Assembly: GCA_935421135.1 (NCBI GenBank)
Contig: OW285192.1
Location: 13,595,501 to 13,659,500 of the forward strand
DNA: 64,000 nucleotides
Source: Bugulina stolonifera
Taxonomy: Eukaryota > Bryozoa > Gymnolaemata > Cheilostomatida > Bugulidae
Reading direction: 5' to 3'
The translations under genes were made by a program, and so were the position numbers. Position 1 is the first letter of the stretch, and each line of letters starts with the position of its first letter. The notes under the pieces are model-generated. The model ran no database searches. It was not told the DNA's origin and saw only the letters and a list, made by a program, of their open reading frames with translations. Below are positions 37,327 through 58,898 of this stretch, in pieces.

Positions 37327-40300
37327 CTATCCAAAGTAATAAAGAATCATTCGTCTTTCGGCCTCTTCAACTATGCACTCGTAATAGCTTCTGGTACGAG
37401 CTAGTCCACATATTGAAACGTCCCTCATAGAATCTAGATGAATAATAATACTAAATAACAAATACTGGATCAGTAAATCAAGACCAAGTAGTATGGATGC
37501 CAAATTATGGAAAAACTTGGAATCTGGGTAGCAAGAGCAGTCACGCTCTCTAGCAGACAACGGTTTTATTTGTAGCTCCCATCTTTGGGAAAATAAAAAA
37601 ATCCATGCACCCACTGCCACAACTAAACCTTATAAATACTATAACTAGGCTACATGTAGTATAAAACTATATTGGCATAATAGCCTATGCTATCAAGGTC
37701 ATCCAAATGTGAACACACCAATAACAATACCTAAACACTTTGTTCCTAGGTAGTTCTTTAGCCTCAACTCCCCTCCTTTGCAGTATGTGTCATACCCTCC
37801 TAAATTGCAGATCATTTCCACATTCTTAACTAAGAAATCTTTTCTGTCTTTTTTTAAAAGTAACTTCTGCTCTCCCAGACAGTTACTAAAGTGATAGTGG
37901 AGCATAGAGAGTTCTTCAGCAACCTGGAATGTCAAAGTTATTGACATTTACATGTAGTTTACATACATTGCTATACAACACTCTAGCCTGAGTTCTCAGA
38001 CAAAGAGAAAAAAAATGGGTCAGCTCAGTGACTATTACGAAGGGTTTAAGATCCAGACTATGTGATGCATAACGCTAATTAGTAGAAACAGTTTTTGTAC
38101 TGGTATTGAGAATATTCTCATTGAGATAGTTTTCTAGTATTAACCTGGAAACTGATTTGTTACATTGAAGGGCAACTACTTTTCCCATGCCAGCTAGTAT
38201 AGTAAACACAAGGATAAACATTGAACAGTTCATAAAATGCATGTGGAAACCCATGAAGTTGAATGCCAATTGAGTAGGCCAAATAAAATAGGAATACAAA
38301 GTGTGATGTTACATGTAAATGAGAAAAGACAGCAGACTTTAAAATCTTTCAATCGTAAAATGCATAAGGAACCATTAGAGAACGATCAGATTTCCCCTGA
38401 TTGTTGTCGACTTTGATAAGCCAATCTTGTCTTGTTACCTGGGAGCCATCTTGAGAGAGGAAGCATGCACAGTTATCTACTTTACAGTAATCGAGTAAAA
38501 TAGGCATTCCAGGCAGAGAAACAGTGTCCTACAAAAACATCCCAAACAATAATTACACATAACTCATATTATCCCCGTCTGTTATATATACATGTATATG
38601 TCTCTATATATATATAATTACATACATGTACAGTATATAGACATAATATAACAGATGGTGATAATTTGAATTAGCTTGCAGTCCCATAGAAACTACTTGT
38701 GTAGAAGTAGCTTGTATGGATATCAAGCTAACCACTGTACTAGACTATTTGATACTACAGAGCTGCTGGTAACAAGTCAAGGATTATTATAGTAATACAA
38801 TACTTGACTGATCAGATATACAATGTAGAAGGTCTCTGCTTTAAAATTATGTTTTGCTTTTTAATGTACATGTAGTACAACTATGATGTGCTTATGATTG
38901 TCAAAATATAAATAGAAAGAAGACAACTATAATACCCCCTTATATGAGTATTATGCATAATTACTATAATACATGGGTTATATAATTTTACTGCATTATC
39001 TGCTATGCAGTTCCAATACAAGTTTAATTAAGATGTCATGTATTTACCAGCCATTTCCCTAAGTAGATCATCAGAGTCAAACTCTTTTGAGCGATAGTTC
39101 TATTTACAAAGGAAGAATCTGTGTATTCTGCTTGAGTGAATGAGGTACAAGTGAGTAGAACAGCTGCTGCCACTACAACACACACAAATGTATATAAAAG
39201 TACAGTATTACATTATTTTGGTTTTCATGTTACAATTTATGAATTTATATCTACAATATTTCATCCTAGAGTGCGATTAAGAATAGCCTACAGCACTATG
39301 TAAGTTAGTGGAATCCATATAATCACTGTATGTAGACTTCTAGTTTTAGCATCTGCGGTGACATGGTTGAATTTTGTATTCTACTAGAAAAACATGTTTG
39401 TCTAATAGCCAAATTGGCTGCAAGCACACCCAGGGTATATAATCTTATGTGTAAAGCTACATGTATACCTACTGTATGATTAAGACAGCACATTTAAAAT
39501 TTTAGGCTATTGAAAAGTAGTATAGTCAGTGCACTTCTAGACAGACACGCACTCATTGACCCCTGTTTTCAACCAATCACAAGCCGGTATTTCCGATTTC
39601 AACCAATCACAGAAGAGCACAAAAATTTTGCACACGACCTTGCCAAGGTCACCCCAAAATCCCCCCTTCTGATTGGTCGAAAAAACATTTGCACACTTGA
39701 CCCCGAACCCGGCCACGACCCCTTCCCTTCCTCCTTCCCACCCTCCTCCCCTCCCCCTCCCCCACCTCCCACTCCTCCCTCCTCCCCGCCACCGCCCTCG
39801 TCCCGTCCGCGCCACCGCCGTCGCCGCCGCCGCCACCGCCGCCCTCACCACCGCCGTCGCCGCCGCCACCACCACCGCCCTCACCACCGTCGCCGCCACC
39901 GCCGCCGCCGCCACCACCGCCACCACCACCACCGCCGCCACCACCACCACCGCCACCGCCGCCGCCGCCGCCACCACCACCACCACCACCGCCGCCGCCG
40001 CCGCCGCCGCCATCACCGTCATCACCGCCACCCCACCACCACCGCCCCCCCCCCCCCCCCCCCGCAACCCCCACTCACCCGAACGACCAATCGTTTGAGG
40101 CGGTCAAGCCGCGTCCGCCCACGTTGCGTGCGGCGCCGACCGTACACGTGGAGGCGACGCCGGTGCCCCGTATCCACCGGGCCAAGCGACTAGGCAGCGG
40201 CCCGCCGCCCATTCCGAGTTCCACTGGGGTGGGACTATAATGTAATATATTAAATTGTTTAGCCTCCCTATAAAAATATATAGTAGTAGGGTGTGAGTTA

Positions 40301-43300
40301 TTTTTTAGCTTGATAGCATTTTATACAATAAACACTTCACAATTGCTGCCAATTACTCCATTTAACACTAACCTTATGTTCTACTTGTTGACATCTCTGA
40401 TCAGGCACTGACTAGTAGGTAGCTGTCTCTGTTTACTCTCACTCTGTTGACTAGAGGCTGATTGTTCATACTGCTAGAGTGAGAAACTTATACCTTAAAT
40501 AGTAGTATTCAGTGGGCGGAGTCTAACCATTTCCCCACCCCGATGTGAATCCGAAGCCTCCCGATGTGAATCCGAAGCCTCCCGATGCACCCCGATGTGA
40601 ATCCGAAGCCTCCCGATGCACCCCGATGTGAATCCGAAGCCTCCCGATGCACCCCGATGTGAATCCGAAGCCTCCCGATGCACCCCGATGTGAATCCGAA
40701 GCCTCCCGATGCATCCCGATGTGATTCCGAAGCTTCCCGATGTGATTCCGAAGCTTCCCGATGCATCCCGATGTGAATCCGAAGCTTCCCGAAGCTTCCC
40801 GATGCATCCCGATGCATCCCGATGTGATTCCGAAGCTTCCCGATGCATCCCGATGTGTCAATTCACATCGGGATGCATCGGGATGCATCGGGAAGCTTCG
40901 GAATCACATCGGGATGCATCGGGAAGCTTCGGAATCACATCGGGATGCATCGGGAAGCTTCGGAATCACATCGGGATGCATCGGGAAGCTTCGGAATCAC
41001 ATCGGGATGCATCGGGAAGCTTCGGATTCACATCGGGATGCATCGGGAAGCTTCGGAATCACATCGGGATGCATCGGGAAGCTTCGGAATCACATCGGGA
41101 TGCATCGGGAAGCTTCGGATTCACATCGGGATGCATCGGGATGCATCGGGAAGCTTCGGAATCACATCGGGATGCATCGGAAGGCTTCGGATTCACATCG
41201 GGATGCATCGGGAGGCTTCGGATTCACATCGGAAGGCTTCGGATTCACATCGGGTCACATTGGGATTGGATAAAAAAAAGGGAGGAGTCAAGAAATGAGC
41301 AGTTGTATAAAGGGAGAGTGGGATCACAGTCTCAGCATTCAAAGTTCACCACATCACTACTGTACAGCTACACTACTACAATAGTACATTATCAATGGAT
41401 ACTGACAACATAGTACAAAACCAAGAAGAGTTATTTGCGGGCTTAACGGACTCACAAATGGATGGAATTATTGAGGAAGAAGAGTGCAGTCAGAAGAGGA
41501 AAGAAGAGGTGGATGCGTTAAAAGAGGCACGGAAGAAGGGGAAAATAATAGGAGTGGGGAGTCCTGCCCGAAAGGATCTTTCTAACATGGTGGACTCTCC
41601 GTCCTCCCCGGAGCGGGCCTCGGATAGGGGCGAGACCACAACAACCCATGGATGAGTATTATTCCAAGATAGAAAAGATGCAGCTTTCTTCAGTAGTATT
41701 GTTTTATTACGAGGTGGACTCTCCGTCCTCCCCGGAGCGGGCCTCGGATAGGGGCGAGACCACAACAACCCATGGATGAGTATTATTCCAAGATAGAAAA
41801 GATGCAGCTTTCTTCAGTAGTATTGTTTTATTACGAAGATAAATAGAGAAAAAATAAAAGAATCAAGAATCAAGCAGAAATCTAAAAAGCAAAGAAAAAA
41901 AAAAAAAAGAATGCAGGTAAGATAAAAACTATTGGTCTCTTTTTTTTTTTTTAGTTATAGTAGTATAAAAACGAATTATAAGTAAGGTGAAGTATTTCTC
42001 TCTAGTCAAAGTGAAAAGGTGAAAAAAGCATAATATTGTTTACATGCGTTGTGAGTGGGAAAGTATTATTTCTTTTATTATAGTATAAACGTTGAAATAG
42101 AGCTCTTATAGAATGATCTCGAACTCTTCCTTCTACTCTGCTTAGCCGTGTAATTATTCCCTCCATACTCCACCCTCGAGCTCGAAGGAGACAGAACAAG
42201 ATGCAGTAGTCTCCACACACGTTAGTACTCTCTTCTTGTAGACACTCTCCATTCCATACTATTGGTATTCCCCATTGTTGTAACATCTTACCCACATCAG
42301 GATAAATAGAAGGGGGGAGACCATAGGAGTCGAAATACTCTATTTCTTTTCCATTCGAAAAAACAGAGATCCAATGCTCGCCACTTTTCTCACTTGTTTG
42401 AGTGTTGAAAACAAAAGATCCAGATGGGGAGAAGGAGTCTAAGAAGTGATCCCTTGGCATAACTCCTCTAAAGGAGGTTGATGAGAGTTTATCATCAGAT
42501 AGAATATTCGAGATTGAGAATGTATCCATTTTTTTTTTTACATCATCCCGGCTACCATAGATACTTCGTGATTTGCATTCAAGTAGATAATGTCATCTTT
42601 TTCTTCGTATACAAACAGTCCAAGTGTATTTTGAGTTTGATTAGCAAATGCTAGATTAATAGATAGACTCCCATTTGATAACAAGTGAAAGTTGTCATCA
42701 CACAAATCTCCTGAAATGTCAAAGGCGTAGAGAGCAGCGCAGGACTTGTATTTGCTAGGGGAGATCTCATTCCCTGTGTCAGCATCGGATGTATTTGTGA
42801 CAGTGAACAAATTCATGAATTCACGAGCAAACTTTCCACTTGCAAAATTTGGTTCATATCTTCGGGTCACCGGTGTTCCATCAATTAGTAATTCTAATGA
42901 ACTTAGATTGTTATGTCCAAATTTGAAGGGATTTTGCTTATACGTTCCACTCTTTGCAGTATGGTTGACTAGTCCGACAAAGACTCTGTTTGGCTTCTGT
43001 CCCGCTTGATCAAAGTTTACTCTCACTGACTGGTGTCCAGCAGGGATGACATGGAAATGAGTTTTTATTCGGTCAATTGGTAGTTTTATAGACTCTTGTT
43101 GCACAACCCAAACATCCATTTGTGCTTTTTGTAAGGCCGGATTGGCTTGTACACGTCGAATCCACAATTCTGTCTTAGTTATAGAAATCTTCGCCCCTCC
43201 TGCAGGGTTGTCTGTTTCTGCTAAGAGGGCCATTTGTGGAATAGCACGTTGTAGAGTAAGGCGAGAGCGAACTCCTGGTGGAATAAGTCTTCCTTGAGAA

Positions 43301-46300
43301 AACATACTCAACCTAGGTCTCCCATAGAAGCTCATCTCTTTACTTGTGGCTATAAGTTTCTTTCTTTTTTCAACCACTTCGGGAGGTATACCATCATAGT
43401 CTTCTCCAGTTCCTTCATCCTCCATCCACCCACTCCCAACTTTCATATATGTGCTCTTAGCATCTTTACCATAGTTTAGGAGATTCTCGACATAAGCTCT
43501 ATGTCCATAGTTTGGTTCATACTCAACATCTTGCCCGGCCAGTTGAACAGTGGCAGAAGAAAAGAGACTGTGCATAAAATTGTCCCCTGGAACAACCTTT
43601 AGTTGTTCTTCCGCAGGTAGTACGCTTCCATCAGCCTTGCTCACCTTTACTGTGGTGTGTAAGTAAGACCTTGATAGATCTGTGTAGAGTTCGTCTGCGG
43701 GCGGGATGTTAAATTCAATAGTGCCATCAGGGGAGTCCGTAACAGGAGCCAAAGGTACCCACTCACCTCTGAGCACGCTAGTATGAGTTGGCGGAGTGGC
43801 AAATAAGTCAAAACTGGAGTCAACCGTGTCTGGAGAGTCTTCAGAAACCTTGGAGAGAGAGATGGCTCGATGTGTGACGGACATGTTCGATAGTGTGAGA
43901 GTTGTTCCATCTAGTACTTGCTCCTACAGTCGCTTGTCTAAGAGTGGGGAGTGGTGAGTCTAGGTGTGGATTATATATTTATCTTTCATTTAGTCAAAAA
44001 CCGTTTTTCTTCCTTTACGCTTTTTCTTTGTAGACTTTTGACTAACTCGTGCACGTTTGGCAGGTGGTTCACGTAATTCATCTTCTACATCACCTAGAAG
44101 ATCCCCACCAGCTTCACGAAAACGTTTTGCTGCAGAGGATTTGAAGTTCTCTCCCTTGATTACATCTCCCAGAACCGAAGCTCCAGTAGTCAATAGCTTT
44201 TTCCCAATAGTTTTGGCACCATTCTTTAGCATGGGAAGGACCCCTCGGGCCAGTCCAGAAAAGAGTGAGCCGATCCCATTACCCGTCATAATAGGTTTTC
44301 CCCTGTACACACTCATTCCCTCTCCCACCTGGTTTGCATAATAGTCTTCATACATCTCACCTGACTCATCAGGAAAATATGGAACTATGCGAGGGGCCAT
44401 GTTATTTCTCTCCACGCGGTCTGAAACGAACCGTCAGCACAACCTTTCCACTGCGAAATGAGACCCTTTCTCCATCATCACGTCTTATATCTACCTCGAT
44501 GAGGTCTGTGCTTGTATTAGACACTGGAGAGTATTGAACATTCGAAAACTCAAAGAAAACGGTGCTATTTCTTTCACTCTCTGTTATAGGAACTGTGCGA
44601 AGTAGGGGGACTAGACTATCTCCAACATGTCTTGGTGAGACTACGGAGGAGTAGACATAGAGGGATGTGAAACCAGCATTGATGTCTGGAGGGTTTTGAC
44701 TCCTGTTGATTTCCGCAGCATATTCTACATCAGGTTCGAATCCCAACACCCACGCAACATCACGTGACATCATGACAGAGTGTTCCTGTTCTCTCAACAT
44801 GAGGAAGGTTTCATTCCGTAGACTATCATAGTAAAAGCTCACTACTTTTTCTAAGTCGTAGTTTATTAGTATTCTATTGATCTCACTCAAAAGTTCACCC
44901 ATGGAAGCATACCTTCCACTCCTGATTTCACATTTTCGTTTGACTCCATCTTTTGTATTCGTAACCACTACATAGCCATCTTCCACATTTCTCCAGGATG
45001 CAGGGTACTGAATGTCAAGTAACCCAACCTCCCACTGTGATGAGTGAAGCTTCAATGTCTTGGCTAGCTTCGTAATGAAGTGAGCATTGGTGTTTGTGTC
45101 ACTCCCACCGATGCGTACATTTGAGGTAAGTGTGACATTGAAGGCCATCTTTGAGAGTGAGCAAAACTGAACTTACATATCGAATTTATACTACCTTTGA
45201 TCTTACACAAACTGACTAGAATCTATCCAACTATTAAATGAAGAGGGATAACCACTCCATTTCACGAAACTCTCTTCTTTTCCTCTCCTTCTCCGTTTAC
45301 GTATGACTTTCTCAACTCTAAAGATTTCAGGTAGGTTAACATGTTGCAATTCTTGTGCATAGAATGTTCCATCTACTCCTTCTTTGTTTAGGTCTTCCAG
45401 TGTATAGACAGGAGGTGAGGTATGTGCCTTGACTGCTTTTATGGTGAATATCTCGGTTGACCAGTTTGGTGTGAACCCTCGCTCAAAGCTACTACGAGCC
45501 ATCGAAATCCGAACATGATCACCTGGTGAGTATTTTACTCTTGTTTTCTTTAACCATCGTTTAGGTGAGAACTCATTTAACCGAACCCAAACCTCTTCTT
45601 GATTATCGTAATCAACCTCAATAGGTTTCATTCCAATTGACCTATTAAAACTGTTGTTATATCCTTGGACTAGGTCTTCTACATCTTCTAAGTAGCGTCC
45701 ATCCCCTCTATAAGTGAGTAGACGATGAATTTTCCCTCTCAATGTTCTATTAAAGCGTTCAACAAGAGCAGCCTTGATGATCTCATTCTCAGAGGTGAAA
45801 TGGCTAACTCCATACTTCTTTAGCACTTCACTCACCCTTCTGTTTAGGAACTCCTTACCTTTATCAGTTTGTATTTGTCTAAAGCTTTCATTTTCGAATA
45901 GAGAGATGAGTGCATTGGACACTTCCAGACCAGACTTGGAATGAAGAGGAAAGACCCATGCTTTCCGTGAGAAGGCATCTATGCAGGTGAGCAAAAATGT
46001 TACTCCATCATTTGAGTCCTTGTGCGCACGCACATCCACGAGATCTGCCTGGAGTTGTTCACCAATCCCACTCACAAACGTTTTTCTCCTTGTAAACTTC
46101 ATTCTAATCGGGCGATGAAGAGTGTATGCGTCTTGACTTCTCAACCACTTCTCAACATCATTCTCATTAATACCAGGAGGAGAAGCTAAAACTAACTTTC
46201 TCTTTCCTCCAAAAGATGGTGGTTGAGGAGGGGAGAAGTAAATATCACGTAGACCTTCATCTATATCATCCATCTTTCTGTTTTACTATTGCTTGCAAGA

Positions 46301-49300
46301 GGGGTTTTAGGAAGCTTTCGCCTAGACCTAGTTTTGATAGGACTTCTATTTTCACCCTTCCCACTCCAACGTGCGCCAGCTTCTGACCTCTCTGGTTTTG
46401 TTTCTCTCCTATATGGGTGTGGTAGTGGTGACCTTGAGCCACTTCGCCTCTTTTCATCATCTCTTTTTTTCTCTCGCCCTCGCTCTTGTGCTTCTTCTTC
46501 TCTTTGTCTCCATGTATGCATTTCATTAAACCTAGTGTTAATTCCCTCTAATGTATTATACAACTCCTGCTGCGGATGGCGTGATCTCTCCAACTCTTTT
46601 AGGAACTTATTCATTTTATGAGCATGTTGCTCTAGCTGAGAGTAGATGTCTGTATCAGAGTTTTTGAGGTTAGATATTACATCTTTTCTGCTTTTTTCTG
46701 CCAGGAGTAGATCCCCATTTGTAGAGAGTGAGGGTAGATGCTCTCCTTCTTTTTTGTTGTTTCTACTATTCATTGATTCATATGTATGTTTATCCATAAG
46801 AAGATACTTTTTAGAAAACTTGAGACTCATTTCACCTTCGTCCACCGCCTAATCCACCAAGCACACCTCCGAGTAAACTTGCCAATGGCTTCAAAAGAAG
46901 ACCTAAAAATCCGCCACGTTGTAGGATTAACTTTTTCTGCCTCACACTAGTACGAGAGTTGGTGAGATCCTCAATGGCCCTTCTATGTCGACGTAGAGAG
47001 TTCAACTGAGCGGTAGTTAGATGAACATTACCTAATAATACATTTCTAGCACACTCAACAAGAGCGAGTATAAGGTCTTTGTTAGCCTCAGCAATGGTTG
47101 AATCTCTGATGGTTGCAGATGCTTTCGTCAGTGCATATATACTCAAGGCATTCCTCCTCAACCTTGGAGAATACTCGGGTGAATTAATGTATCTCATGCT
47201 TGATGATGGATGCGCTCTCTTCGAGTCCAAGACAGTTTATGGAGAGAGTAGAGATGTGAATGCTACTTATATTCCAGGGTATTCGGGATATATACAGTCA
47301 TGGGAGAGTGCTCAGAAGCAAAATTACCGATCAGTCTAGCCCACTCCGGGGTTTCCTGGCGAAGATTCAAGAATAGAAAAGAGTGTGGCTTACGTGTAGC
47401 ATCACTAAAAGCTTCTTGAACAGCTCTTGTACTCTGAGGAAAAGCCTGCTTTGCAAGATTGGTAACAGACATTCCGTCTCTGGGGTTCTTGAACAAGAAA
47501 AAGTACTGCGAGTTTATTGACACTGTTCTATTATCTTTCGGGAAAAGGTTCTGTAGTAAGAAAAAGACGCTTATGTTCAGGTGGTGACTGAACTTTGTAA
47601 AGATTGCATTAGTAGTCTCTTTCCCCCCGACTTCACCCATCAAGTCATCAATGATGAGCCAGCGATTCTTCCCATCACGCTCTATATCCATTTCTACATC
47701 AATGAGTCCTGAATGAAACCTTACTTTATCCTTGTAATCCTCAAAGCGGCGTTGCCAAACTCCATAGCAGTAAATGATTTCAACAGGAGTGGGTGAAGCA
47801 ATTTCATCAACTCTCCTAATAAGACTAAATAGTAGTTCCGTTTTTCCACTCCCTGTTGGACCACAGACTAGAGCTGTGAAGGGACTCTGCAAGCGAAGAT
47901 CGATTTCTTGGTGTGGACGCATGCTGATCCAGTTGAGTAGCTAATAGAGTTGTGTTTGTTTTTAAAAAGTGTCCTTGCTTAAGTACTCCTTTGTCTTTGC
48001 CATTGGGTGGTTCCCTATCACTTAGATATGTGTAAACTGATGGTGATAAAGATGAGCAAGAAAGTATAAATAGTATTATGATTATGTAGAATGTGAACTT
48101 CTTTCTTTTGTTGCTTCTCTCTCCTATTTGCTCCCTTCCCTCTTCAGCAGAGATAGCTACTACTTCATCTAAGAGACCATCAGCCACATCTTCATAATTC
48201 TCATTTCTACATACTACCTCTTGCTTTGACATCTTGCCCTTGTTTGAGAGAACGATTGGAATCTATACACTTTTATTCATCATTACTTTCTCCTGTTGGA
48301 ACCCACTGTGGCAGTTTACTATCTTCCCCTTCTGCTTTTGCATCATTATCATCTAGTTTGTTAGCCAGGTGGGGAATTATGTGATCAATAATTGATACAC
48401 TATCCATTTTTTCTTCTTCTTCTTCTTTTTGCAAACGCTCGATTTCCATCATTAACCTCTCTTTTTCCATTCTTTCCTCTGTTAACTTTTTTTCTAAGAA
48501 GGCAATGCGATTTGTTCTTCTCTCTTTTCTTGCATCAATTCTCTGTTGCATCTCTAGTGCTTCTTTCCACCCCAGTGCTCCTGCCAATTCCACTTTCTTT
48601 AGTGCCAATTCTTGTTCTATCTTTCTAATCTCTTGTTCCCTTTTGTCACACATTTCAACCTCTTCTTTAGTTTCTACATGAGTTTGCTCTTCTATCATAA
48701 TCTGCTTATTCTCTCCTGTAGAAGTCTCTCTCACTTCCACCCTAGCTTCTCCTGGTGAAGGGCTTCTTATCTCCTCTAACCCGTTTTTGGATGAATCTAG
48801 TTCTCCAATGTCACACATTTCAACCTCTTCTATCATAACCTGGTTAGTCTCTCCTGTAGAAGTCTCTCTCACCTCTAATCTAGCATCTCCTGGTGAAGGA
48901 CTTCTTATCACCTCTAACCCATTTTTGGATGGATCTAGTTCTCCAAACAATCGCCCTGCATATAGCGTATTACCTCTACTAAGAATTAAACCAGGGATGC
49001 TTTCTTCATTGTAACTCCTCTTCGCTCGCGATTTCTCCTTCCCATCCTCAAAGCGACATCTTCTTGCCCCATCCTTTAATATGTTCAATACTCTATGATA
49101 GAGTTCATTCTTTGAACCTTCCCCACCAGGTTCATTATCCAGATATAGTAAGAAGTGAGTGTTAAAAGTGGCCTCCGCTCCCACACCAGTTTCATCCCAG
49201 TTTCTATCTTCAATAATCTTCTCAACCTCCACTCTACACCAGGTTGACAACTCTGCATTCCTAAGAAGGAGTAAGGGAGAAGAAACGGATGCGTTTTTTG

Positions 49301-50585
49301 TTTCTACCATAGATGAAAATCTTGACCTAGCTCCTGTTAAGTCTTCATAACAAAGTGCCATTTTCCTCAACTTTTCCTCTCCTATCTTAAAAGGGATATT
49401 CATAGAGAGTGAAAGTGTTCTAAAATAGATGGCAAGCTCTACCACTAAGGAATTATGAGCGAGTCTGTCAACCCAATACCACATCCATGGACTATTCGTT
49501 TCTTCGATATTACTTTTGATCATATAATCCCATACAGACTTCGGGAGGACTTCCTTTAAAAGTACATATCTCCCCGCTGCTCCTTTGGTGAGAAAAGACA
49601 TGTTTGCTATGACTAAGTCTTCTTTGTATTAATACTATCATCAGTCAAACTTATCTTTTATAGTCCCACCCCAGTGGAACTCGGAATGGGCGGCGGGCCG
49701 CTGCCTAGTCGCTTGGCCCGGTGGATACGGGGCACCGGCGTCGCCTCCACGTGTACGGTCGGCGCCGCACGCAACGTGGGCGGACGCGGCTTGACCGCCT
49801 CAAACGATTGGTCGTTCGGGTGAGTGGGGGTTGCGGGGGGGGAGGGTGGGCGGCGGTGGAGGAGGGGTGGCGGTGATGACGGTGATGGCGGCGGCGGCGG
49901 CGGCGGCGGTGGTGGTGGTGGTGGTGGCGGCGGCGGCGGCGGTGGCGGTGGTGGTGGTGGCGGCGGTGGTGGTGGTGGCGGTGGTGGCGGCGGCGGCGGT
50001 GGCGGCGACGGTGGTGAGGGCGGTGGTGGTGGCGGCGGCGACGGCGGTGGTGAGGGCGGCGGTGGCGGCGGCGGCGACGGCGGTGGCGCGGACGGGACGA
50101 GGGCGGTGGCGGGGAGGCGGGAGGAGTGGGAGGTGGGGGAGGGGGAGGGGAGGAGGGTGGGACGGAGGAAGGGAAGGGGTCGTGGCCGGGTTCGGGGTCA
50201 AGTGTGCAAATGTTTTTTCGACCAATCAGAAGGGGGGATTTTGGGGTGACCTTGGCAAGGTCGTGTGCAAAATTTTTGTGCTCTTCTGTGATTGGTTGAA
50301 ATCGGAAATACCGGCTTGTGATTGGTTGAAAACAGGGGTCAATGAGTGCGTGTCTGTCTAGAAGTGCACTGACTATACTACTTTGAAACAACCAAATGTC
50401 AAAGTTTAGTTAACTTATTTATTCATTAGTACTATTGTATTATACATGTATGTGAATATCAAACAATTTACTATCAGGAAAACACCATTTTATTCAAGGT
50501 TGAACTGCTACACAAAGTTTTACATGTACAGAAAATAGTTTAAAAGCTTACCCAACAGAACTGCCACTTTAGAAAACTGCTTCAT
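37327..50585 (-). CDS. Small secreted cysteine-containing protein, intron 1 carrying a Polinton
   Basis: The model is 182 aa. Exons are 50552-50585, 39048-39172, 38439-38528, 37731-37923 and 37327-37433. Exon 1 encodes MKQFSKVAVLL and joins in phase to VAAAVLLTCTSFTQAEY, forming a typical cleavable signal peptide. The mature protein has Cys-rich segments (DYCKVDNCACF, MICNLGGYDTYC) and ends ICGLARTRSYYECIVEEAER...YYFG. All five exons match those of the plus-strand paralogue at 51309-53233 in phase and in the pattern of conserved Cys. I recognise no known family. Exon 1 is separated from exon 2 by the 10.9-kb Polinton. Without it the intron would be about 500 bp, like the paralogue's (493 bp). 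The protein probably functions outside the cell. Confidence 0.8.
39510..39515. repeat. 6-bp target site duplication (left)
   Basis: TTGAAA, identical to 50383-50388. Six base pairs is the duplication length made by Polinton/Maverick integrases. Confidence 0.95.
39516..40240. repeat. Left terminal inverted repeat of the Polinton (725 bp)
   Basis: It starts AGTAGTATAGTCAGTGCACT and ends GGTGGGACTATAA, matching the reverse complement of 49658-50382 with roughly eight substitutions. The outer 220 bp is unique sequence with a repeated AACCAATCACA motif (39575 and 39600). The middle 300 bp is a CCG/CCA/CCT trinucleotide tract. Several mismatches to the other arm lie in a poly-C run near 40047-40065, which may be a real homopolymer change or a consensus error. 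The long open frames here (poly-His/Arg, poly-Gly) come from the repeat and are unlikely to be genes. Confidence 0.95.
40541..41258. repeat. Palindromic 31-bp minisatellite array (about 700 bp)
   Basis: The left arm (about 40541-40856) repeats units of the type CCCGATGCATCCCGATGTGA followed by ATCCGAAGCCT or ATTCCGAAGCTT. The right arm (about 40862-41258) repeats the exact reverse complement. The centre is at about 40857-40862. Outer units of both arms share the GAGGCTTCGGATTC variant and inner units share GAAGCTTCGGAATC, so the arms mirror each other. The unit contains the self-complementary words GATGCATC and GAAGCTTC. Long Ser/His/Gly-rich frames through it, on both strands, are by-products of the repeat. 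It lies between the left terminal repeat and the plus-strand gene. Confidence 0.95.
41306..41312 (+). promoter_or_regulatory. TATA box of the 86-aa Polinton gene
   Basis: TATAAAG, 83 nt upstream of the ATG at 41395 and just downstream of the palindromic array. Confidence 0.55.
41395..41655 (+). CDS. Small acidic/basic Polinton protein, unknown function
   Basis: 86 aa, the only Polinton gene on the plus strand, converging with the capsid operon-like block. The N-terminal half is acidic (GIIEEEECSQ), followed by a Lys/Arg-rich helix (KRKEEVDALKEARKKGK) and a Ser/Pro-rich tail (DSPSSPERASDRGETTTTHG). No family recognised. It has its own TATA box. The codons for the last 22 residues and the stop lie within a 124-bp unit that is duplicated in tandem immediately downstream, so an earlier form of the 3' end may have differed. 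It could be an early regulatory protein. That is inference from its separate promoter and opposite orientation only. Confidence 0.55.
   Translation: MDTDNIVQNQEELFAGLTDSQMDGIIEEEECSQKRKEEVDALKEARKKGKIIGVGSPARKDLSNMVDSPSSPERASDRGETTTTHG
41590..41837 (+). repeat. 124-bp perfect tandem duplication
   Basis: Two copies (41590-41713 and 41714-41837) begin GTGGACTCTCCGTCCTCCCC and end GTATTGTTTTATTACGA. The first contains the 3' end and stop codon of the 86-aa gene. The identity of the copies shows that the duplication is recent. Confidence 0.9.
42002..42529 (-). CDS. Adenain/Ulp1-type cysteine protease (maturation protease)
   Basis: 175 aa. Polintons use this C5/C48-fold peptidase to process capsid precursors, like the adenovirus protease. 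The catalytic set is visible in the right order: His52 in GEHWISVF, Asp67 in EYFDSYG, Gln98 in CLQEES (oxyanion hole) and Cys105 in VCGDYCILFC. Adenain has the same order over a slightly longer chain. The start ATG at 42529 follows the major-capsid-like stop by 8 nt, so the two may be co-transcribed. It is the last gene of the minus-strand block. Confidence 0.9.
   Translation of the reverse strand: MDTFSISNILSDDKLSSTSFRGVMPRDHFLDSFSPSGSFVFNTQTSEKSGEHWISVFSNGKEIEYFDSYGLPPSIYPDVGKMLQQWGIPIVWNGECLQEESTNVCGDYCILFCLLRARGWSMEGIITRLSRVEGRVRDHSIRALFQRLYYNKRNNTFPLTTHVNNIMLFSPFHFD
42538..43884 (-). CDS. Major-capsid-like protein of the Polinton
   Basis: 448 aa. It opens with SSFDLFATPPTHTSVLRGEW and continues IEFNIPPADELYTDLSRSYL, HSLFSSATVQLAGQDVE and YEPNYGHRAYVENLLNYG. 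This pattern is shared by the F54H12.2-like proteins widespread in invertebrate Polinton-related elements, which I take to be double-jelly-roll major capsid (hexon) proteins. A later block (IDRIKTHFHVIPAGHQSVRV, VFVGLVNHTAKSGTYKQNPFKF) is also characteristic. Size fits. The fold assignment comes from family knowledge and is not visible directly. A TATA-like sequence lies about 90 nt upstream of the ATG, separate from the gene before it. Confidence 0.8.
   Translation of the reverse strand: MSVTHRAISLSKVSEDSPDTVDSSFDLFATPPTHTSVLRGEWVPLAPVTDSPDGTIEFNIPPADELYTDLSRSYLHTTVKVSKADGSVLPAEEQLKVVPGDNFMHSLFSSATVQLAGQDVEYEPNYGHRAYVENLLNYGKDAKSTYMKVGSGWMEDEGTGEDYDGIPPEVVEKRKKLIATSKEMSFYGRPRLSMFSQGRLIPPGVRSRLTLQRAIPQMALLAETDNPAGGAKISITKTELWIRRVQANPALQKAQMDVWVVQQESIKLPIDRIKTHFHVIPAGHQSVRVNFDQAGQKPNRVFVGLVNHTAKSGTYKQNPFKFGHNNLSSLELLIDGTPVTRRYEPNFASGKFAREFMNLFTVTNTSDADTGNEISPSKYKSCAALYAFDISGDLCDDNFHLLSNGSLSINLAFANQTQNTLGLFVYEEKDDIIYLNANHEVSMVAGMM
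43971..43977 (-). promoter_or_regulatory. TATA box of the major-capsid-like gene
   Basis: TATATAA on the minus strand, about 87 nt upstream of the ATG at 43884 and just past the stop codon of the pX-like gene. Confidence 0.5.
43990..44415 (-). CDS. Basic core / pX-like virion protein
   Basis: 141 aa. The N-terminal Tyr-rich part leads to IGSLFSGLARGVLPMLKNGA and KTIGKKLLTTGASVLGDVI, a Gly-rich amphipathic segment typical of the adenovirus pX/pVI-like minor virion proteins of Polinton-related elements. The C-terminus is strongly basic (PPAKRARVSQKSTKKKRKGR), suitable for DNA binding or nuclear import. It starts with MERNNMAP; a second Met six residues in (MAPRIVPYF) is an alternative start that matches related proteins as I recall them. 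With the upstream ATG it overlaps the end of the penton-like gene by 14 nt. Confidence 0.7.
   Translation of the reverse strand: MERNNMAPRIVPYFPDESGEMYEDYYANQVGEGMSVYRGKPIMTGNGIGSLFSGLARGVLPMLKNGAKTIGKKLLTTGASVLGDVIKGENFKSSAAKRFREAGGDLLGDVEDELREPPAKRARVSQKSTKKKRKGRKTVFD
44402..45148 (-). CDS. Penton-like minor capsid protein
   Basis: 248 aa. The N-terminus has the pattern seen in minor (single-jelly-roll) capsid proteins of Polinton-related elements: FNVTLTSNVRIGGSDTNTNA, then a segment ending QWEVGLLDIQYPASW. Later blocks are MLREQEHSVMMSRDVAWVLG and SLYVYSSVVSPRHVGDSLVP. I recognise the N-terminal strand/turn pattern from the family; the jelly-roll fold itself is inferred. It is followed directly by the pX-like and major-capsid-like genes, a capsid cluster as in other Polintons. 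A TATA-like TATAAATT lies about 35 nt upstream. Confidence 0.75.
   Translation of the reverse strand: MAFNVTLTSNVRIGGSDTNTNAHFITKLAKTLKLHSSQWEVGLLDIQYPASWRNVEDGYVVVTNTKDGVKRKCEIRSGRYASMGELLSEINRILINYDLEKVVSFYYDSLRNETFLMLREQEHSVMMSRDVAWVLGFEPDVEYAAEINRSQNPPDINAGFTSLYVYSSVVSPRHVGDSLVPLLRTVPITESERNSTVFFEFSNVQYSPVSNTSTDLIEVDIRRDDGERVSFRSGKVVLTVRFRPRGEK
45183..45190 (-). promoter_or_regulatory. TATA-like box of the penton-like gene
   Basis: TATAAATT on the minus strand between the integrase stop (45203) and the penton-like ATG (45148). Confidence 0.45.
45203..46273 (-). CDS. Polinton integrase (DD35E) with C-terminal chromodomain
   Basis: 356 aa. It is a retroviral-type integrase that inserts the element and creates 6-bp duplications. 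The catalytic triad is Asp77 (EQLQADLVDV), Asp137 (QIQTDKGKEFL) and Glu172 (AALVERFNRTLRG), giving 35-residue spacing between the second Asp and Glu. The core also has FLLTCIDAFSRKAWVFPL. An SH3-like DNA-binding region follows (KYSPGDHVRIS). A chromodomain closes the protein (residues about 318-356: RVEKVIRKRRRRGKEESFVK, then WSGYPSSFNSW), which may steer integration to marked chromatin. The ATG overlaps the end of the upstream 189-aa ORF by 13 nt. All key residues are intact. Confidence 0.95.
   Translation of the reverse strand: MDDIDEGLRDIYFSPPQPPSFGGKRKLVLASPPGINENDVEKWLRSQDAYTLHRPIRMKFTRRKTFVSGIGEQLQADLVDVRAHKDSNDGVTFLLTCIDAFSRKAWVFPLHSKSGLEVSNALISLFENESFRQIQTDKGKEFLNRRVSEVLKKYGVSHFTSENEIIKAALVERFNRTLRGKIHRLLTYRGDGRYLEDVEDLVQGYNNSFNRSIGMKPIEVDYDNQEEVWVRLNEFSPKRWLKKTRVKYSPGDHVRISMARSSFERGFTPNWSTEIFTIKAVKAHTSPPVYTLEDLNKEGVDGTFYAQELQHVNLPEIFRVEKVIRKRRRRGKEESFVKWSGYPSSFNSWIDSSQFV
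46261..46830 (-). CDS. Polinton protein with coiled coil and basic tail, unknown function
   Basis: 189 aa from the ATG at 46830. The open frame extends further only through a GTG. It starts SLKFSKKYLLMDKHTYESM, reminiscent of short N-terminal motifs on an unnamed protein found in related elements. The middle is helical and charged, and the C-terminal third is Arg/Lys/Ser-rich (REEEAQERGREKKRDDEKRR, KTRSRRKLPKT), suggesting nucleic-acid binding. The ATG sits one base after the stop of the upstream gene (TGAAATG). The 3' end overlaps the integrase start by 13 nt. The function is unknown. Confidence 0.7.
   Translation of the reverse strand: MSLKFSKKYLLMDKHTYESMNSRNNKKEGEHLPSLSTNGDLLLAEKSRKDVISNLKNSDTDIYSQLEQHAHKMNKFLKELERSRHPQQELYNTLEGINTRFNEMHTWRQREEEAQERGREKKRDDEKRRSGSRSPLPHPYRRETKPERSEAGARWSGKGENRSPIKTRSRRKLPKTPLASNSKTERWMI
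46832..47197 (-). CDS. Small conserved Polinton protein with hydrophobic Gly-rich tail
   Basis: 121 aa from the first ATG (47197); an in-frame stop lies upstream. The middle has LILALVECARNVLLGNVHLT and LNSLRRHRRAIEDLTN, then KKLILQRGGFLGLLLKPLAS and a Gly-rich end. I recall similar small proteins next to capsid genes in invertebrate Polinton-like elements. The tail resembles a membrane-active or capsid-associated peptide. The role is unproven: minor virion protein is the favoured guess. Its stop codon and the next ATG form TGAAATG, a possible stop-restart junction. Confidence 0.65.
   Translation of the reverse strand: MRYINSPEYSPRLRRNALSIYALTKASATIRDSTIAEANKDLILALVECARNVLLGNVHLTTAQLNSLRRHRRAIEDLTNSRTSVRQKKLILQRGGFLGLLLKPLASLLGGVLGGLGGGRR
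47263..47922 (-). CDS. FtsK/HerA-type genome-packaging ATPase
   Basis: 219 aa. This ATPase (A32-like) pumps DNA into the capsid in Polintons and related viruses. Walker A is GPTGSGKT at residues 21-28. Walker B is RWLIIDDLM at about 87-95, with two acidic residues. The sensor-like strand SVFFLLQNLFPKDNRTVSIN follows, with conserved Gln and Asn. Length is normal for the family. The first 98 nt overlap the end of the upstream membrane-protein ORF in another frame. Confidence 0.92.
   Translation of the reverse strand: MRPHQEIDLRLQSPFTALVCGPTGSGKTELLFSLIRRVDEIASPTPVEIIYCYGVWQRRFEDYKDKVRFHSGLIDVEMDIERDGKNRWLIIDDLMGEVGGKETTNAIFTKFSHHLNISVFFLLQNLFPKDNRTVSINSQYFFLFKNPRDGMSVTNLAKQAFPQSTRAVQEAFSDATRKPHSFLFLNLRQETPEWARLIGNFASEHSPMTVYIPNTLEYK
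47825..48232 (-). CDS. Membrane-anchored Polinton protein, unknown function
   Basis: 135 aa. An acidic N-terminal region of about 35 residues and a basic NKRKK stretch precede one membrane segment (FTFYIIIILFILSCSSLSPS), then a hydrophilic tail of about 70 residues. No family recognised. Single-pass proteins encoded beside the ATPase could act in virion morphogenesis or exit, but this is inference. The last 98 nt overlap the ATPase gene in a different frame, so either the C-terminal part is real overlapping coding or the ORF is spliced or shorter than it appears. Confidence 0.55.
   Translation of the reverse strand: MSKQEVVCRNENYEDVADGLLDEVVAISAEEGREQIGERSNKRKKFTFYIIIILFILSCSSLSPSVYTYLSDREPPNGKDKGVLKQGHFLKTNTTLLATQLDQHASTPRNRSSLAESLHSSSLWSNREWKNGTTI
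48273..49601 (-). CDS. 442-aa Polinton orphan with internal duplication and coiled coil
   Basis: First gene of the minus-strand block, starting 57 nt from the right terminal repeat. Residues 1-200 look globular and helical (LPKSVWDYMIKSN, WMWYWVDRLAHNSLVVELA). Residues 220-264 and 266-318 are a direct duplication (GELDPSKNGLEVIRSPSPG and GELDSSKNGLEEIRSPSPG). Residues about 320-400 are a highly charged coiled coil. No polymerase, helicase, nuclease or terminal-protein motif is visible. In other Polintons this position often holds replication genes, so a replication-accessory role is conceivable, but the sequence gives no proof. Confidence 0.7.
   Translation of the reverse strand: MSFLTKGAAGRYVLLKEVLPKSVWDYMIKSNIEETNSPWMWYWVDRLAHNSLVVELAIYFRTLSLSMNIPFKIGEEKLRKMALCYEDLTGARSRFSSMVETKNASVSSPLLLLRNAELSTWCRVEVEKIIEDRNWDETGVGAEATFNTHFLLYLDNEPGGEGSKNELYHRVLNILKDGARRCRFEDGKEKSRAKRSYNEESIPGLILSRGNTLYAGRLFGELDPSKNGLEVIRSPSPGDARLEVRETSTGETNQVMIEEVEMCDIGELDSSKNGLEEIRSPSPGEARVEVRETSTGENKQIMIEEQTHVETKEEVEMCDKREQEIRKIEQELALKKVELAGALGWKEALEMQQRIDARKERRTNRIAFLEKKLTEERMEKERLMMEIERLQKEEEEEKMDSVSIIDHIIPHLANKLDDNDAKAEGEDSKLPQWVPTGESNDE
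49655..49662 (-). promoter_or_regulatory. TATA box at the inner edge of the right terminal repeat
   Basis: TATAAAAG on the minus strand, about 54 nt upstream of the 442-aa gene. It straddles the boundary of the inverted repeat. The left repeat copy reads TATAATG and lacks the full box. Confidence 0.55.
49658..50382. repeat. Right terminal inverted repeat of the Polinton (725 bp)
   Basis: Reverse complement of 39516-40240, ending TATACTACT. It has the same trinucleotide-repeat core, here read as GGC/GGT, and the same paired TGATTGGTTGAAA motifs near the outer end (50290 and 50319). It contains a TCCGCC/CGGTG-rich core in place of the long poly-C run in the left copy. Confidence 0.95.
50383..50388. 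repeat. 6-bp target site duplication (right)
   Basis: TTGAAA, identical to 39510-39515. Confidence 0.95.
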
Positions 50586-56045: not shown

Positions 56046-58898
56046 TTATTTACTACAAACAACACAGGTCAGCTCTGAGCCCTCCACATATGGTGGACAG
56101 TGCCCAATTGAAGAACAAACTCCTTGAACAGGATAGAACAGTGCTCCATTTTCATTTCCTGGTTTACCAGCTACAGATTCAGGGGTCTTGTCTACACAGG
56201 CATAGTTGTAAGCTCTCTTGTGTGAATGGTGGCCAGCCATCAGATACCCCTCATATTCCTATAATAATATTAACATAACTGTATACCAGATAAATACTGA
56301 AAACAGAGGGTAATTCTACATATATATTCTGAAGAGGGTAAGCATAATTTTCGAGTACTTCTATATTGTGAAGAAACATATTTTCTTCGGCCATTTTTGA
56401 AACTTGGAGCAAAACTTTAGTTGTAAACTCTACCCGTCAGTATTTTTAATAATTCTTTGTCTGATCATGGCAAGGGTTATAGCTAATAGATTGGTAATAT
56501 TCAAAATATTAATACTGTGCATGCAAGTCATATACAATGGATATACATGTAGTTAGTAGAATCAAAGGAGAAACTAGCATACATGTATACAGTGTAATTG
56601 TAGGATTGTATAAAAGTCAGGTGAAATATGTACATGTATTATAATATGAAAAAGGGCAAAGTATAGCACATCAGTATGCTACTTACCTTAGTCCATGATC
56701 GAGGGCAGGTTCTCTTAGCTGGAACCATTATCGTAGTTGACCTCTCAGCTGTGTAACATCTGGCACATGGTACATTCTGGTCCTGCATGTTTCCAGGGAA
56801 AAGGTTGCCCTCATGCTCATATTCAGCACCATAAATAAATGTACCCGAAGAAGTTCCTGCGTTAATTTTAGAATATTCCGGATCAAGTGGAAGACACTGG
56901 TAGTTGGATGCCCCTCCAGAGTGTGTGTAGTGCTGCCCACCAACAAATCCTGTAAGAGAAAGTTGATCACAGTCTACAGAGTGAATATGCACTTGCTATG
57001 CATACACAATTTACAGCACTGGTTGGTTATAATGTCATTGGGAGGCTGATCTTCTAACCAAAGAGCTGAGGTTTGATTCTCACGGCCAGTGGCAGTTTTC
57101 AAAAGGAGTTTCTCCTGTACTGCCTTAGCCTTGCAGTGCTAACACTCTGCACTCCCTGTAAAGAGTCAGGAACCTTTACGTTATTTGACATCAGGATGAA
57201 TAAAGTAATTATGGAAAGACCTTGGAGTTCATGATAGGTTTAAAATAAAGTTATTTTTGTGTTTTCCTACATCTAAGGGTGCAACCAACTTCTTAGGACT
57301 CTATAATATTGTATCAACTACTAGTATACTCTTCGTGTTAGTTGGATATCAACATACGTTTACTCCATTCTTTATGCTGTTTAATACTGTTCAATAACTA
57401 GTTTATTATTAGTTTATCATCTTTTGTAGGTATCTAAGAGACATGTACACCCTGTACTTACCCTTATACACTAGCTCTGAGTTACTACCACAAGTCGTTC
57501 TGCCCCAACGTACGTATGTGGAACCTCCTGTACCACTGGTCTCTTCTACAACATATTGAGTTATAAATCAGAGTCACCTAAACTAAACTAAACTGTTTCT
57601 GCTTGCTACTAAATAATTTAAAATGAAGAGAAGCTACAAATTTTATATCTGGGATTCATTCTAAGTTGAATAACATTCAGTACAACAAAAACCGATCTGA
57701 ACTTTTCTAGAGAAACCAAGTTGAACCTACCTTCAGATTCACCAAGATCTGCATCTTCCAGTTTAGCCAGCGTCTGCTGCATCTTGATAAGAAGGGCGTG
57801 TCCAATTGACTCATTGATTCCTTTCAGTAGTTCTTCTGTGAGGTGAAAAGATTGGGTTATTATGTTCTGGTACAAAATAGTCCGATGATTCAATATAGAA
57901 TTAACTAACACTGGTGTTCATAAAAGAAGCAATAATTCTAGGAATCTCGGCTAACTTGGAGTTTTGACTTTGGGTGAATGACTTTTGATTGTATGATCGA
58001 CAGTAAAAGTGATATAACATGTCTTTATTGTGGTATACATGTAGTAGTAGATTTGGTGGGATGGGCATAAAAAGCAGATATTTTACATCTACATAATGGT
58101 CTACAAATAACCATTTGTATAAATAGATCATTCTACGTACAATTCAATAAAATATAATTGGTAAAACTGAGAAGTCCTCAGCAATAAAGGGTTGAGCTCT
58201 TACCTTCATTTACTTGGTCACAATCTCTGCCATCTCTACCATTCTTTCCATCTCTGCCAGGTGGACCTCTCAACAGGGGAATTCGGTCTAAAGAAATAAG
58301 TTCCTTACAGAACATATCACAGAAATTTAGATCAACATGGTATTGCAGCAATGTGCTAGCTTTATTAGATGCACATGAACATGCACATGTATATTTTCTG
58401 TATCAGTCAGCCAAATGCAAGTGAATGACTTCGATCCATGTACACTATATTACATGTATATTGTGCTTTTTAAACTGAAGTAAGTCGGGTATACTCAGTA
58501 CTCACAGTAATCTTCAGGTCCACCTGCATCTCTTTTACTGATTGTCTTTTCGGAGTTGTCCTAAAGTTACATGTAAGCATAGTAGATCAGACAAAATGCT
58601 TATAATGCACATAATATTATAACCATGTATCACATGTAATTAAAGTGTCAAAAGAAGGAGATATAATTGTAGAACATCACAAGCTGTAGCATATTACCTG
58701 ATGAGTGTACGCATTGAGCAAGGTTTTCATGACCAACTGTTCATCCTCCAATTTTCCTATTTTAGCACCAAAGTAGCAGGAAATAGCAAGAGCTGTGATC
58801 GCCAGGAGCAGTGCCAGTCCTGAGACAGCGTTGCCTATAGACATTCTTCCACCTTCTTGTCTTCTTTGCTTCAGAAATGTTGTATCATCAGAGTCCAT
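56046..58898 (-). CDS. Short-chain collagen-like protein B (type II membrane, spongin-type C-terminal domain)
   Basis: The model is 334 aa. Exons are 58698-58898, 58506-58560, 58204-58287, 57731-57835, 57462-57545, 56687-56949 and 56046-56258. Exons 3, 6 and 7 have exactly the lengths of those in collagen gene A. A membrane segment (LALLLAITALAISCYFGAKI) precedes a KRDAG site, the short collagen run RGPPGRDGKNGRDGRDC, the INESIGHALLIKMQQTLAKL helix, YVRWGRTTC, NYQCLPLDPEY, CARCYTAERSTTIMVPAKRT and the terminal TCVVCSK. The C-terminal two exons are far more conserved with gene A than the N-terminal exon, apart from the membrane core. It is presumably a membrane-tethered or shed extracellular-matrix protein. 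Confidence 0.86.
57016..57245 (+). repeat. SINE derived from tRNA-Arg(TCT), in a collagen B intron
   Basis: Positions 57016-57091 fold like a tRNA. GCACTGG pairs with CCAGTGG (6 of 7), the anticodon region ATCTTCTAACCAAAG matches tRNA-Arg(TCT), and the T arm is TGAGGTTTGATTCTCA with a B-box-like core. A non-tRNA tail continues to about 57245. The mismatches and tail make a SINE more likely than a functional tRNA gene. Confidence 0.6.

What the first reader, a model, noticed from the sequence alone, without database searches (positions are those of the whole stretch)
39516..50382. Intact virion-type Polinton without DNA polymerase B
The element has perfect termini, a 6-bp duplication, near-identical 725-bp terminal repeats, and intact integrase, packaging ATPase, protease, penton-like, major-capsid-like and core genes, yet none of its ORFs shows family B polymerase motifs. 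The gene block reaches to 57 bp from the right repeat, and the left side is filled by a repeat array, so nothing is simply unread. Because it moved recently, it must borrow a polymerase, use an unrecognised one, or replicate another way. It would be a capsid-encoding satellite of full Polintons, or a distinct lineage.
Basis: partly seen in the sequence, partly recalled or inferred. Interest (0 to 1): 0.88.

Follow-up and report, generated by a model that had tools for sequence, protein, structure and literature searches.

The report
Polinton genome split into separate segments
A virus-like mobile element found at about two hundred places in one genome carries capsid and integration genes but no DNA polymerase, and it likely depends on a polymerase carried by a second, similarly abundant element with matching ends, as if one viral genome had been split into separate pieces.

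Summary
In detail: 39516-50382 is an intact Polinton-type element (725-bp inverted repeats, 6-bp duplication, integrase, packaging ATPase, double-jelly-roll capsid protein) with no recognisable polymerase. The explanation goes beyond a satellite. In the same 235-Mb genome a polymerase sits on a different element, "P": about 9.65 kb, its own terminal repeats and 6-bp duplications, a spliced-looking family-B polymerase, no detectable integrase or capsid gene. P shares the first 18 nt (29-30 of 33) of the window element's ends and a leader region at 351 of 357 nt. Counts: capsid gene 196 places, P polymerase 277, and 143 for a third, "cargo" element that has the window element's terminal repeats but an ankyrin gene instead. 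On contig C1, 16 of 16 listed polymerase copies lie between P ends, 13 of 16 listed capsid copies between window-type ends, and no pair holds both. A one-piece relative (Q, 17.3 kb) carries both gene sets. Most likely this is a split, multi-segment Polinton whose parts complement one another; replication, integration and packaging in trans are inferred, not shown. I found no such Polinton in the papers I searched.

The parts
39510..39515 (.). left target-site duplication TTGAAA
50383..50388 (.). right target-site duplication TTGAAA
39516..40240 (+). left terminal inverted repeat (725 bp), begins AGTAGTATAGTCAGTGCA
   Evidence: 725 nt, 7 mismatches to the right repeat; 98.3-98.8% over 694 nt in the cargo element L040
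49658..50382 (-). right terminal inverted repeat
39516..39548 (+). terminal 33 nt shared with the polymerase element P (18-nt identical prefix, 29-30 of 33); candidate protein-primed origin or integrase site (inferred)
   Evidence: 15-kb Polinton 18-20 of 33, Q 16-18 of 33
40551..41232 (.). array of ~31-bp units, also present beside the leader gene in element P
41395..41655 (+). leader ORF, 86 aa; looks like a truncated form of a longer ORF carried by P (41290-41646: 351 of 357 nt identical)
41589..41836 (.). exact 124-bp tandem duplication at the end of the leader ORF
42002..42529 (-). adenain-like protease, 175 aa
   Evidence: Pfam C5 E 0.1 only; 36% to Q over 144 aa
42538..43884 (-). double-jelly-roll major capsid protein, 448 aa
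   Evidence: 31-39% to Q; 196 places genome-wide
43990..44415 (-). 141-aa basic core-like protein (label recalled)
   Evidence: 43.5% to Q over 108 aa
44402..45148 (-). 248-aa penton-like protein (label recalled)
   Evidence: 35% to Q over 245 aa
45203..46273 (-). retrovirus-type integrase with chromodomain, 356 aa
   Evidence: 40% to Q over 351 aa, 24.8% to the 15-kb Polinton
46261..46845 (-). 194-aa coiled-coil-like protein
   Evidence: no significant match in Q
46832..47230 (-). 132-aa protein; in Q the polymerase gene lies between this gene and the ATPase gene
   Evidence: 40% to Q over 84 aa
47263..47922 (-). packaging ATPase, 219 aa
   Evidence: Pox_A32; 38.5% to Q; 150 scored copies
47825..48232 (-). 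135-aa ORF with a hydrophobic stretch
   Evidence: no family, no match in Q
48273..49601 (-). 442-aa orphan protein, coiled-coil-like C-terminus
   Evidence: no homologue among 7993 scored candidates, no family, model uninformative

Best explanation
This element carries the capsid, packaging and integrase genes but no recognisable DNA polymerase, and it is most likely one segment of a split Polinton that would be copied by a polymerase encoded on a separate co-amplified element (P) with matching ends. Shown: the window-type element (about 10.7 kb), P (about 9.65 kb; polymerase, a leader ORF and a 298-aa ORF, no detectable integrase or capsid gene) and a cargo element (about 9.56 kb; window-type terminal repeats, ankyrin gene, none of the tested Polinton genes) all have perfect 6-bp duplications wherever checked and near-identical copies. 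Inferred: the P polymerase starts protein-primed synthesis at the shared terminus (AGTAGT, a 3-nt repeat of the kind used for jumping back in such systems, recalled), so that it copies window, cargo and P DNA; the window element's integrase inserts all three; its capsid proteins and ATPase may package all three. Neither the window element nor P has the full set alone, so they would depend on each other, while the cargo element would depend on both.
For: Partition of genes: of 22 protein queries each run alone by tblastn, only polymerase pieces match P (the best other is E 0.086), no polymerase piece matches the window element better than E 0.16, and none matches the cargo element L040 better than E 0.21. 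On C1, of the listed exact matches, 16 of 16 P-polymerase copies lie between P ends and 0 between window/cargo ends; 13 of 16 capsid copies lie between window-type ends and 0 between P ends; none of 29 window/cargo pairs has both capsid and ankyrin matches. Genome-wide counts, reversed-pattern control 0 each: window/cargo ends 366+369, capsid 116+80, ankyrin 75+68, P ends 321+320, P polymerase 143+134. Ends: P shares an 18-nt prefix and 29-30 of 33 nt with the window element; the two other Polinton families 16-20 of 33. Leader region 351 of 357 nt identical between P and window. Duplications perfect in 4 of 4 further window-type copies, 5 of 5 P and 5 of 5 cargo copies, plus P on C10 and L040. 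Recent: eight copies differ from the window by 0-6 substitutions in 3657 nt; four P copies differ from a fifth by 0-1 substitutions in about 700 nt, length changes aside. The one-piece relative Q holds both gene sets, with the polymerase between the 132-aa and ATPase genes; P's polymerase is 37% identical to Q's over 1144 aligned positions and an exon of it passes the Pfam DNA_pol_B_2 cut-off (29.7 vs 25.8 bits).
Against: No expression, virion or replication data. All four Polinton families here begin AGTAGTAT, so part of the end match is generic. The 15-kb Polinton shares TTCTRGA at positions 20-26 with the window element, which P does not, and its terminus is the best of 555,100 26-nt pairs between the two repeats, so the 15-kb or Q polymerase could be the donor. 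Repeats of P and window differ past nt 33. P's polymerase needs splicing at two inferred GT-AG introns. P could use another family's integrase. The 442-aa orphan could be an unrecognised replication protein. The window's leader ORF looks truncated, so the shared region could be a relic of recombination and not a working signal. Gene content was cross-tabulated on C1 only, from lists that stop at 100 exact places; 3 of 16 capsid and 1 of 10 ankyrin matches there lie outside listed pairs, and 7 of 29 window/cargo pairs hold neither (4 of these 7 hold an ATPase match).
Confidence: 0.68

Rival explanations
1. One-way satellite: the element is a capsid-bearing parasite replicated in trans by the autonomous one-piece Polintons of the same genome (the 15-kb family or Q), and P is just another satellite.
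For: The 15-kb Polintons (six copies) carry a family-B polymerase together with integrase and ATPase; their first 26 nt match the window terminus 17-18 of 26, the best of 555,100 26-nt pairs between the two repeats, with TTCTRGA at the same place. Q is the closer relative in its proteins.
Against: Ends of P are closer (29-30 of 33 against 16-20); P polymerase is at 277 places while 15-kb copies number six and Q has two polymerase matches; several 15-kb copies have broken polymerase frames; the leader region was found in P and gave no blastn match in the 15-kb loci (Q was not compared for it).
Confidence: 0.17
2. It brings its own replication protein: the 442-aa orphan (or a smaller ORF) is an unrecognised initiator or polymerase.
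For: No family, no homologue, no usable model, so its function is open; the gene is next to the right repeat.
Against: Its gene holds a 138-bp internal repeat and its C-terminal part is charged and coiled-coil-like by eye; no polymerase, helicase or nuclease family hit; Q keeps a polymerase at the site where this element has none.
Confidence: 0.07
3. Ordinary non-autonomous deletion derivatives: three offshoots of one lost Polinton that merely share ends and ride on whatever machinery is present, with no mutual dependence.
For: A shared leader region at 98% and shared termini fit a common source; the leader ORF looks truncated in the window element.
Against: Gene content of the window element and P is complementary and non-overlapping apart from the leader; 149 of 150 scored ATPase copies have no stop; no parent with these repeats and both gene sets was seen (C1 only).
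Confidence: 0.08

Closest known systems
Polintons / Mavericks (one-piece)
   Same: Integrase with chromodomain, packaging ATPase, double-jelly-roll capsid, AG-starting terminal repeats, 6-bp duplications; Q and the 15-kb family in this genome are of this kind.
   Different: The polymerase, stated to be in all Polintons (PMC4642659, passages seen), was not found here and lies on another element.
Bidnaviruses
   Same: Polinton-derived polymerase, genome in two linear segments with conserved terminal structure, packed into separate capsids (PMC4061559, passages seen).
   Different: Single-stranded, parvovirus-type capsid, 6-6.5-kb segments.
Tlr1 elements of Tetrahymena
   Same: Capsid and integrase genes in a Polinton-like element without a standard pPolB (PMC4642659 passages; PMC11071308 passages and one section).
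   Different: Tlr1 encodes its own polymerase-derived helicase protein; no replication protein is recognised here.
Adintoviruses and other 'meldviruses'
   Same: Adintoviruses: capsid plus chromodomain integrase. Genomes with such virion genes but no recognisable PolB are reported (PMC11071296, passages seen).
   Different: The reported PolB-less ones also lack a recognisable integrase; no partner element with polymerase and matching ends was described in what I saw.
Polydnaviruses (recalled)
   Same: Replication genes, virion genes and host-manipulating cargo on separate integrated DNAs.
   Different: Different virus ancestry; there the cargo is packaged as circles and does not spread as a transposon.

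Membership tests
Polinton/Maverick | retrovirus-type integrase | tested here: met
   rve 2e-11, chromodomain 1.2e-6
[quoted passage not shown]
   10 ORFs; five polymerase pieces, best E 0.16
Polinton/Maverick | long terminal inverted repeats and 6-bp target duplication | tested here: met
Polinton/Maverick | double-jelly-roll major capsid protein | tested here: met
Polinton/Maverick | packaging ATPase | tested here: met
   Pox_A32 28.5 bits, cut-off 22.8
Polinton/Maverick | adenovirus-type protease and minor capsid protein | tested here: inconclusive
   C5 E 0.1; no family for the 248-aa protein; both have counterparts in Q
Segmented/multipartite replicon | essential functions divided over separate DNAs with common ends | tested here: met
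   common to 18 nt, 29-30 of 33
Segmented/multipartite replicon | segments replicated, packaged and transmitted together | not testable with these tools
   needs DNA intermediates or virions
Satellite of an autonomous helper | helper able to replicate and package by itself | tested here: inconclusive
   P has no detectable integrase, capsid or ATPase gene, but the one-piece Polintons remain possible helpers
Deletion derivative of a full-length copy | full-length parent with the same repeats | tested here: inconclusive
   none among 29 exact-end pairs on C1; other contigs were only counted
Bidnaviridae | parvovirus-type capsid and ssDNA genome | tested here: not met
   capsid is double-jelly-roll; strandedness not testable

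The most novel reading that the evidence does not exclude
A three-segment endogenous double-stranded DNA virus that lives as a transposon: a virion/integrase segment, a replicase segment and a host-manipulating segment with a Bcl-3/IkB-like ankyrin gene, integrated at well over a hundred places each, copied by one polymerase from common ends, inserted by one integrase and packaged by one capsid. It would be a segmented Polinton, with division of labour between mobile DNAs inside one genome.
Probability: 0.45. Interest if true: 0.93.

Novelty: new variant of a known kind. Interest (0 to 1): 0.86.

Why it matters
Polintons are seen as self-sufficient and as the root of many eukaryotic DNA viruses. 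A natural split of replicase and virion/integrase genes over separately integrated, co-amplified elements would show how a transposon becomes a segmented virus, and would explain how an element without a polymerase reaches about two hundred places. It offers many recent copies of each part in one genome, so that co-mobility, complementation and the origin signal can be tested directly. The cargo segment suggests that such a system can pick up and amplify an ankyrin gene of a kind known from immune signalling.

Tried and rejected
Simple reading error or unread region: rejected, ten ORFs were scanned and the whole element was compared in six frames with polymerase pieces of three families. Helper = the six 15-kb Polintons: first favoured on the AGTAGTATA / TTCTRGA match, then demoted when P was found. 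PF03175 alone (11 matches, 14 candidates) undercounts the polymerase, probably because P's gene is split by introns; the 36-mer count corrects it. Viral contigs gave no relative of the capsid protein, P polymerase exon or integrase. The protein search gave 7 relatives of the capsid protein besides the window's own, none of the 442-aa protein, and 493 of the P polymerase exon (120 listed), including animals such as Holothuria, Porites and Branchiostoma. A sequence search of solved structures with the capsid protein gave only chance-level matches. The 442-aa N-terminal model (pLDDT 39) was not used; copies of the 442-aa gene were not counted, because one search did not complete. (0 hits) used guessed codons and (0 hits) a mis-spaced pattern; both are ignored and were redone. 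The batch tblastn failed to list the 15-kb integrase match to the window element (E 5e-15 when run alone), so all queries were run again one by one, and the partition is quoted from that call. The longer window/cargo elements (13-17 kb) were not read fully; the part read of one 15-kb example looks like a cargo element with other sequence inserted.

Not in print: searches. For 'Polinton' with 'multipartite' and 'segmented' (5 papers, 5 listed) and with 'bipartite' (21 papers, 12 listed), passages were seen in PMC6943099, PMC11071296, PMC12220804 and PMC4061559, none of them read in full; the others were seen as listings, except PMC11071308 (passages and one section). None of what I saw describes a split Polinton. 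Kapitonov and Jurka 2006 is not held.

Full report

Copies. The window lies in a 235-Mb, 27-contig genome (host not named; a flanking ORF at 56639-56995, resembles collagen-C4-like genes of sponges and cnidarians, recalled). For the ATPase gene 150 of 263 candidates were scored, all at 99-100% identity, 149 without a stop. Eight copies differ from the window by 0 to 6 substitutions over 3657 nt. Four further copies have exact ends, lengths of 10,035 to 10,824 bp and four different perfect duplications. The capsid 30-mer occurs at 196 places (116+80, up to 3 mismatches, control 0; the 100 listed are exact).

Other elements with the same repeats. The 25-nt terminus occurs 366+369 times (up to 2 mismatches, control 0). 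On C1 the exact ends make 29 pairs: 13 hold a listed capsid copy (median 10,704 bp), 9 a listed ankyrin copy (median 9,564 bp), none both, 7 neither. The cargo element L040 has the window repeats at 98.3-98.8% over 694 nt and none of the tested Polinton genes (best E 0.21). It carries exon-sized ankyrin ORFs on one strand: Pfam Ank 1.1e-5; one exon piece matches Bcl-3 best in the PDB (3.3e-6, closely followed by MIB1 at 4.5e-6), another matches ankyrins and designed repeats in general. The ankyrin 36-mer occurs at 143 places (75+68, control 0).

The polymerase. Pfam DNA_pol_B_2 gives 11 matches. They fall into three families. First, a 15-kb one-piece Polinton with repeats of about 818 bp, 6-bp duplications in the two copies read at both ends (GATTAC, TAATAT), and 11 termini for six copies; several polymerase frames are broken. 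Second, Q, a one-piece element of 17,276 bp with 215-bp repeats (98.6%) and duplication GCAGTG, two polymerase matches. Third, P: on C10 an element of 9,877 bp with repeats 97.4% identical over about 545 nt and duplication GAAATG.

P is the key. Its ends read AGTAGTATAGTCAGTGCAGATCT(A/G)CACAGACAC: the first 18 nt equal the window element's, and 29-30 of 33 agree, against 18-20 for the 15-kb family and 16-18 for Q. P ends occur 321+320 times (up to 2 mismatches, control 0), with median length 9,650 bp for 29 exact-end pairs on C1, besides two unpaired ends there. A 36-mer of its polymerase gene occurs 143+134 = 277 times (up to 3 mismatches, control 0). All 16 listed C1 copies lie between P ends and none between window/cargo ends; 13 of the 29 P pairs on C1 hold no exact match, some of them of a second subfamily. 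Five of five further P copies and five of five further cargo copies have perfect, different 6-bp duplications. Four P copies differ from a fifth by 0-1 substitutions in about 700 nt, apart from length changes. The polymerase is interrupted by two apparent GT-AG introns near motif C: Q's polymerase aligns to P in pieces of 1144, 29 and 126 positions at 37, 72 and 50% identity (introns inferred, exons not joined). A P exon passes the Pfam cut-off, and the N-terminal part carries C2H2 fingers.

Partition and history. With 22 protein queries, each run alone, P matches only polymerases (next best E 0.086), the window element only virion, ATPase and integrase proteins (best polymerase E 0.16), the cargo element nothing (best E 0.21). 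In Q these are in one element: protease 36%, capsid 31-39%, 141-aa 43.5%, penton-like 35%, integrase 40%, 132-aa 40%, ATPase 38.5% identical to the window's, with the polymerase between the 132-aa and ATPase genes; the 194-, 135- and 442-aa ORFs have no significant match there. In the window the 132-aa and ATPase ORFs are 32 bp apart. P and the window element share the array and a leader region (351 of 357 nt), whose ORF is shorter in the window element. So the window element looks like a Q-type Polinton that lost its polymerase, and P like a carrier of the related polymerase that exchanged ends and leader with it (inference).

How it most likely works. Inferred: P's polymerase initiates on the common terminus and copies all three kinds; the window integrase inserts them; the capsid may package them. 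The end match with the 15-kb family (17-18 of 26; best of 555,100 pairs; TTCTRGA at 20-26; signature count 289+293, control 2+0) and the AGTAGTAT start of all four families show that part of the end is generic, so cross-use of other polymerases is not excluded. The 442-aa orphan remains unexplained.

Against the literature. Passages in PMC4642659 state that all Polintons encode the polymerase and the integrase; the element fails that feature itself. Bidnaviruses are the nearest precedent for a polymerase of Polinton origin in a two-segment genome (PMC4061559, passages). PMC11071296 (passages) reports animal virus genomes without PolB and names multipartite genomes as one possible explanation for another group. 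I did not find a split Polinton in the ten searches listed under Tried and rejected. Verdict: real, and a new variant of a known kind; window/cargo and P elements together make up roughly 6.8 Mb, about 3% of the genome (rough estimate from end counts and assumed typical lengths).

Noticed in passing
L040:1436-2726 and copies: Cargo element carries an exon-split ankyrin gene (Bcl-3 narrowly the best PDB hit for one piece), 143 places genome-wide; a second ORF at L040:6290-7744 has no family.
   Followed up: partly
L044, L068, L069: Polymerase gene of P contains two apparent GT-AG introns flanking a 29-aa exon, whereas Q's polymerase reads as one long frame; this probably hides the gene from single-frame profile searches.
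   Followed up: partly
C1:34611747-34619851 and C1:34619950; C1:14210583 and C1:14211142: A P-type pair ends 98 bp before a 15-kb Polinton begins, and a window-type element ends 558 bp before a P element. Possible insertion preference near other copies; not tested against chance.
   Followed up: no
L048 versus L054: P comes in at least two subfamilies (AGATCTACACAG and AGATCTGCACAG ends); the copy L069 of the second is about 94% identical to the C10 copy, L068 of the first 97.8%.
   Followed up: partly
window 56639-56995 (-): ORF resembling collagen-C4-like genes of sponges or cnidarians (recalled), a hint at the host.
   Followed up: no
P0010: A 55%-identical relative of the P polymerase comes from a 10,038-base environmental contig, close to P's length; its context could not be read.
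   Followed up: no
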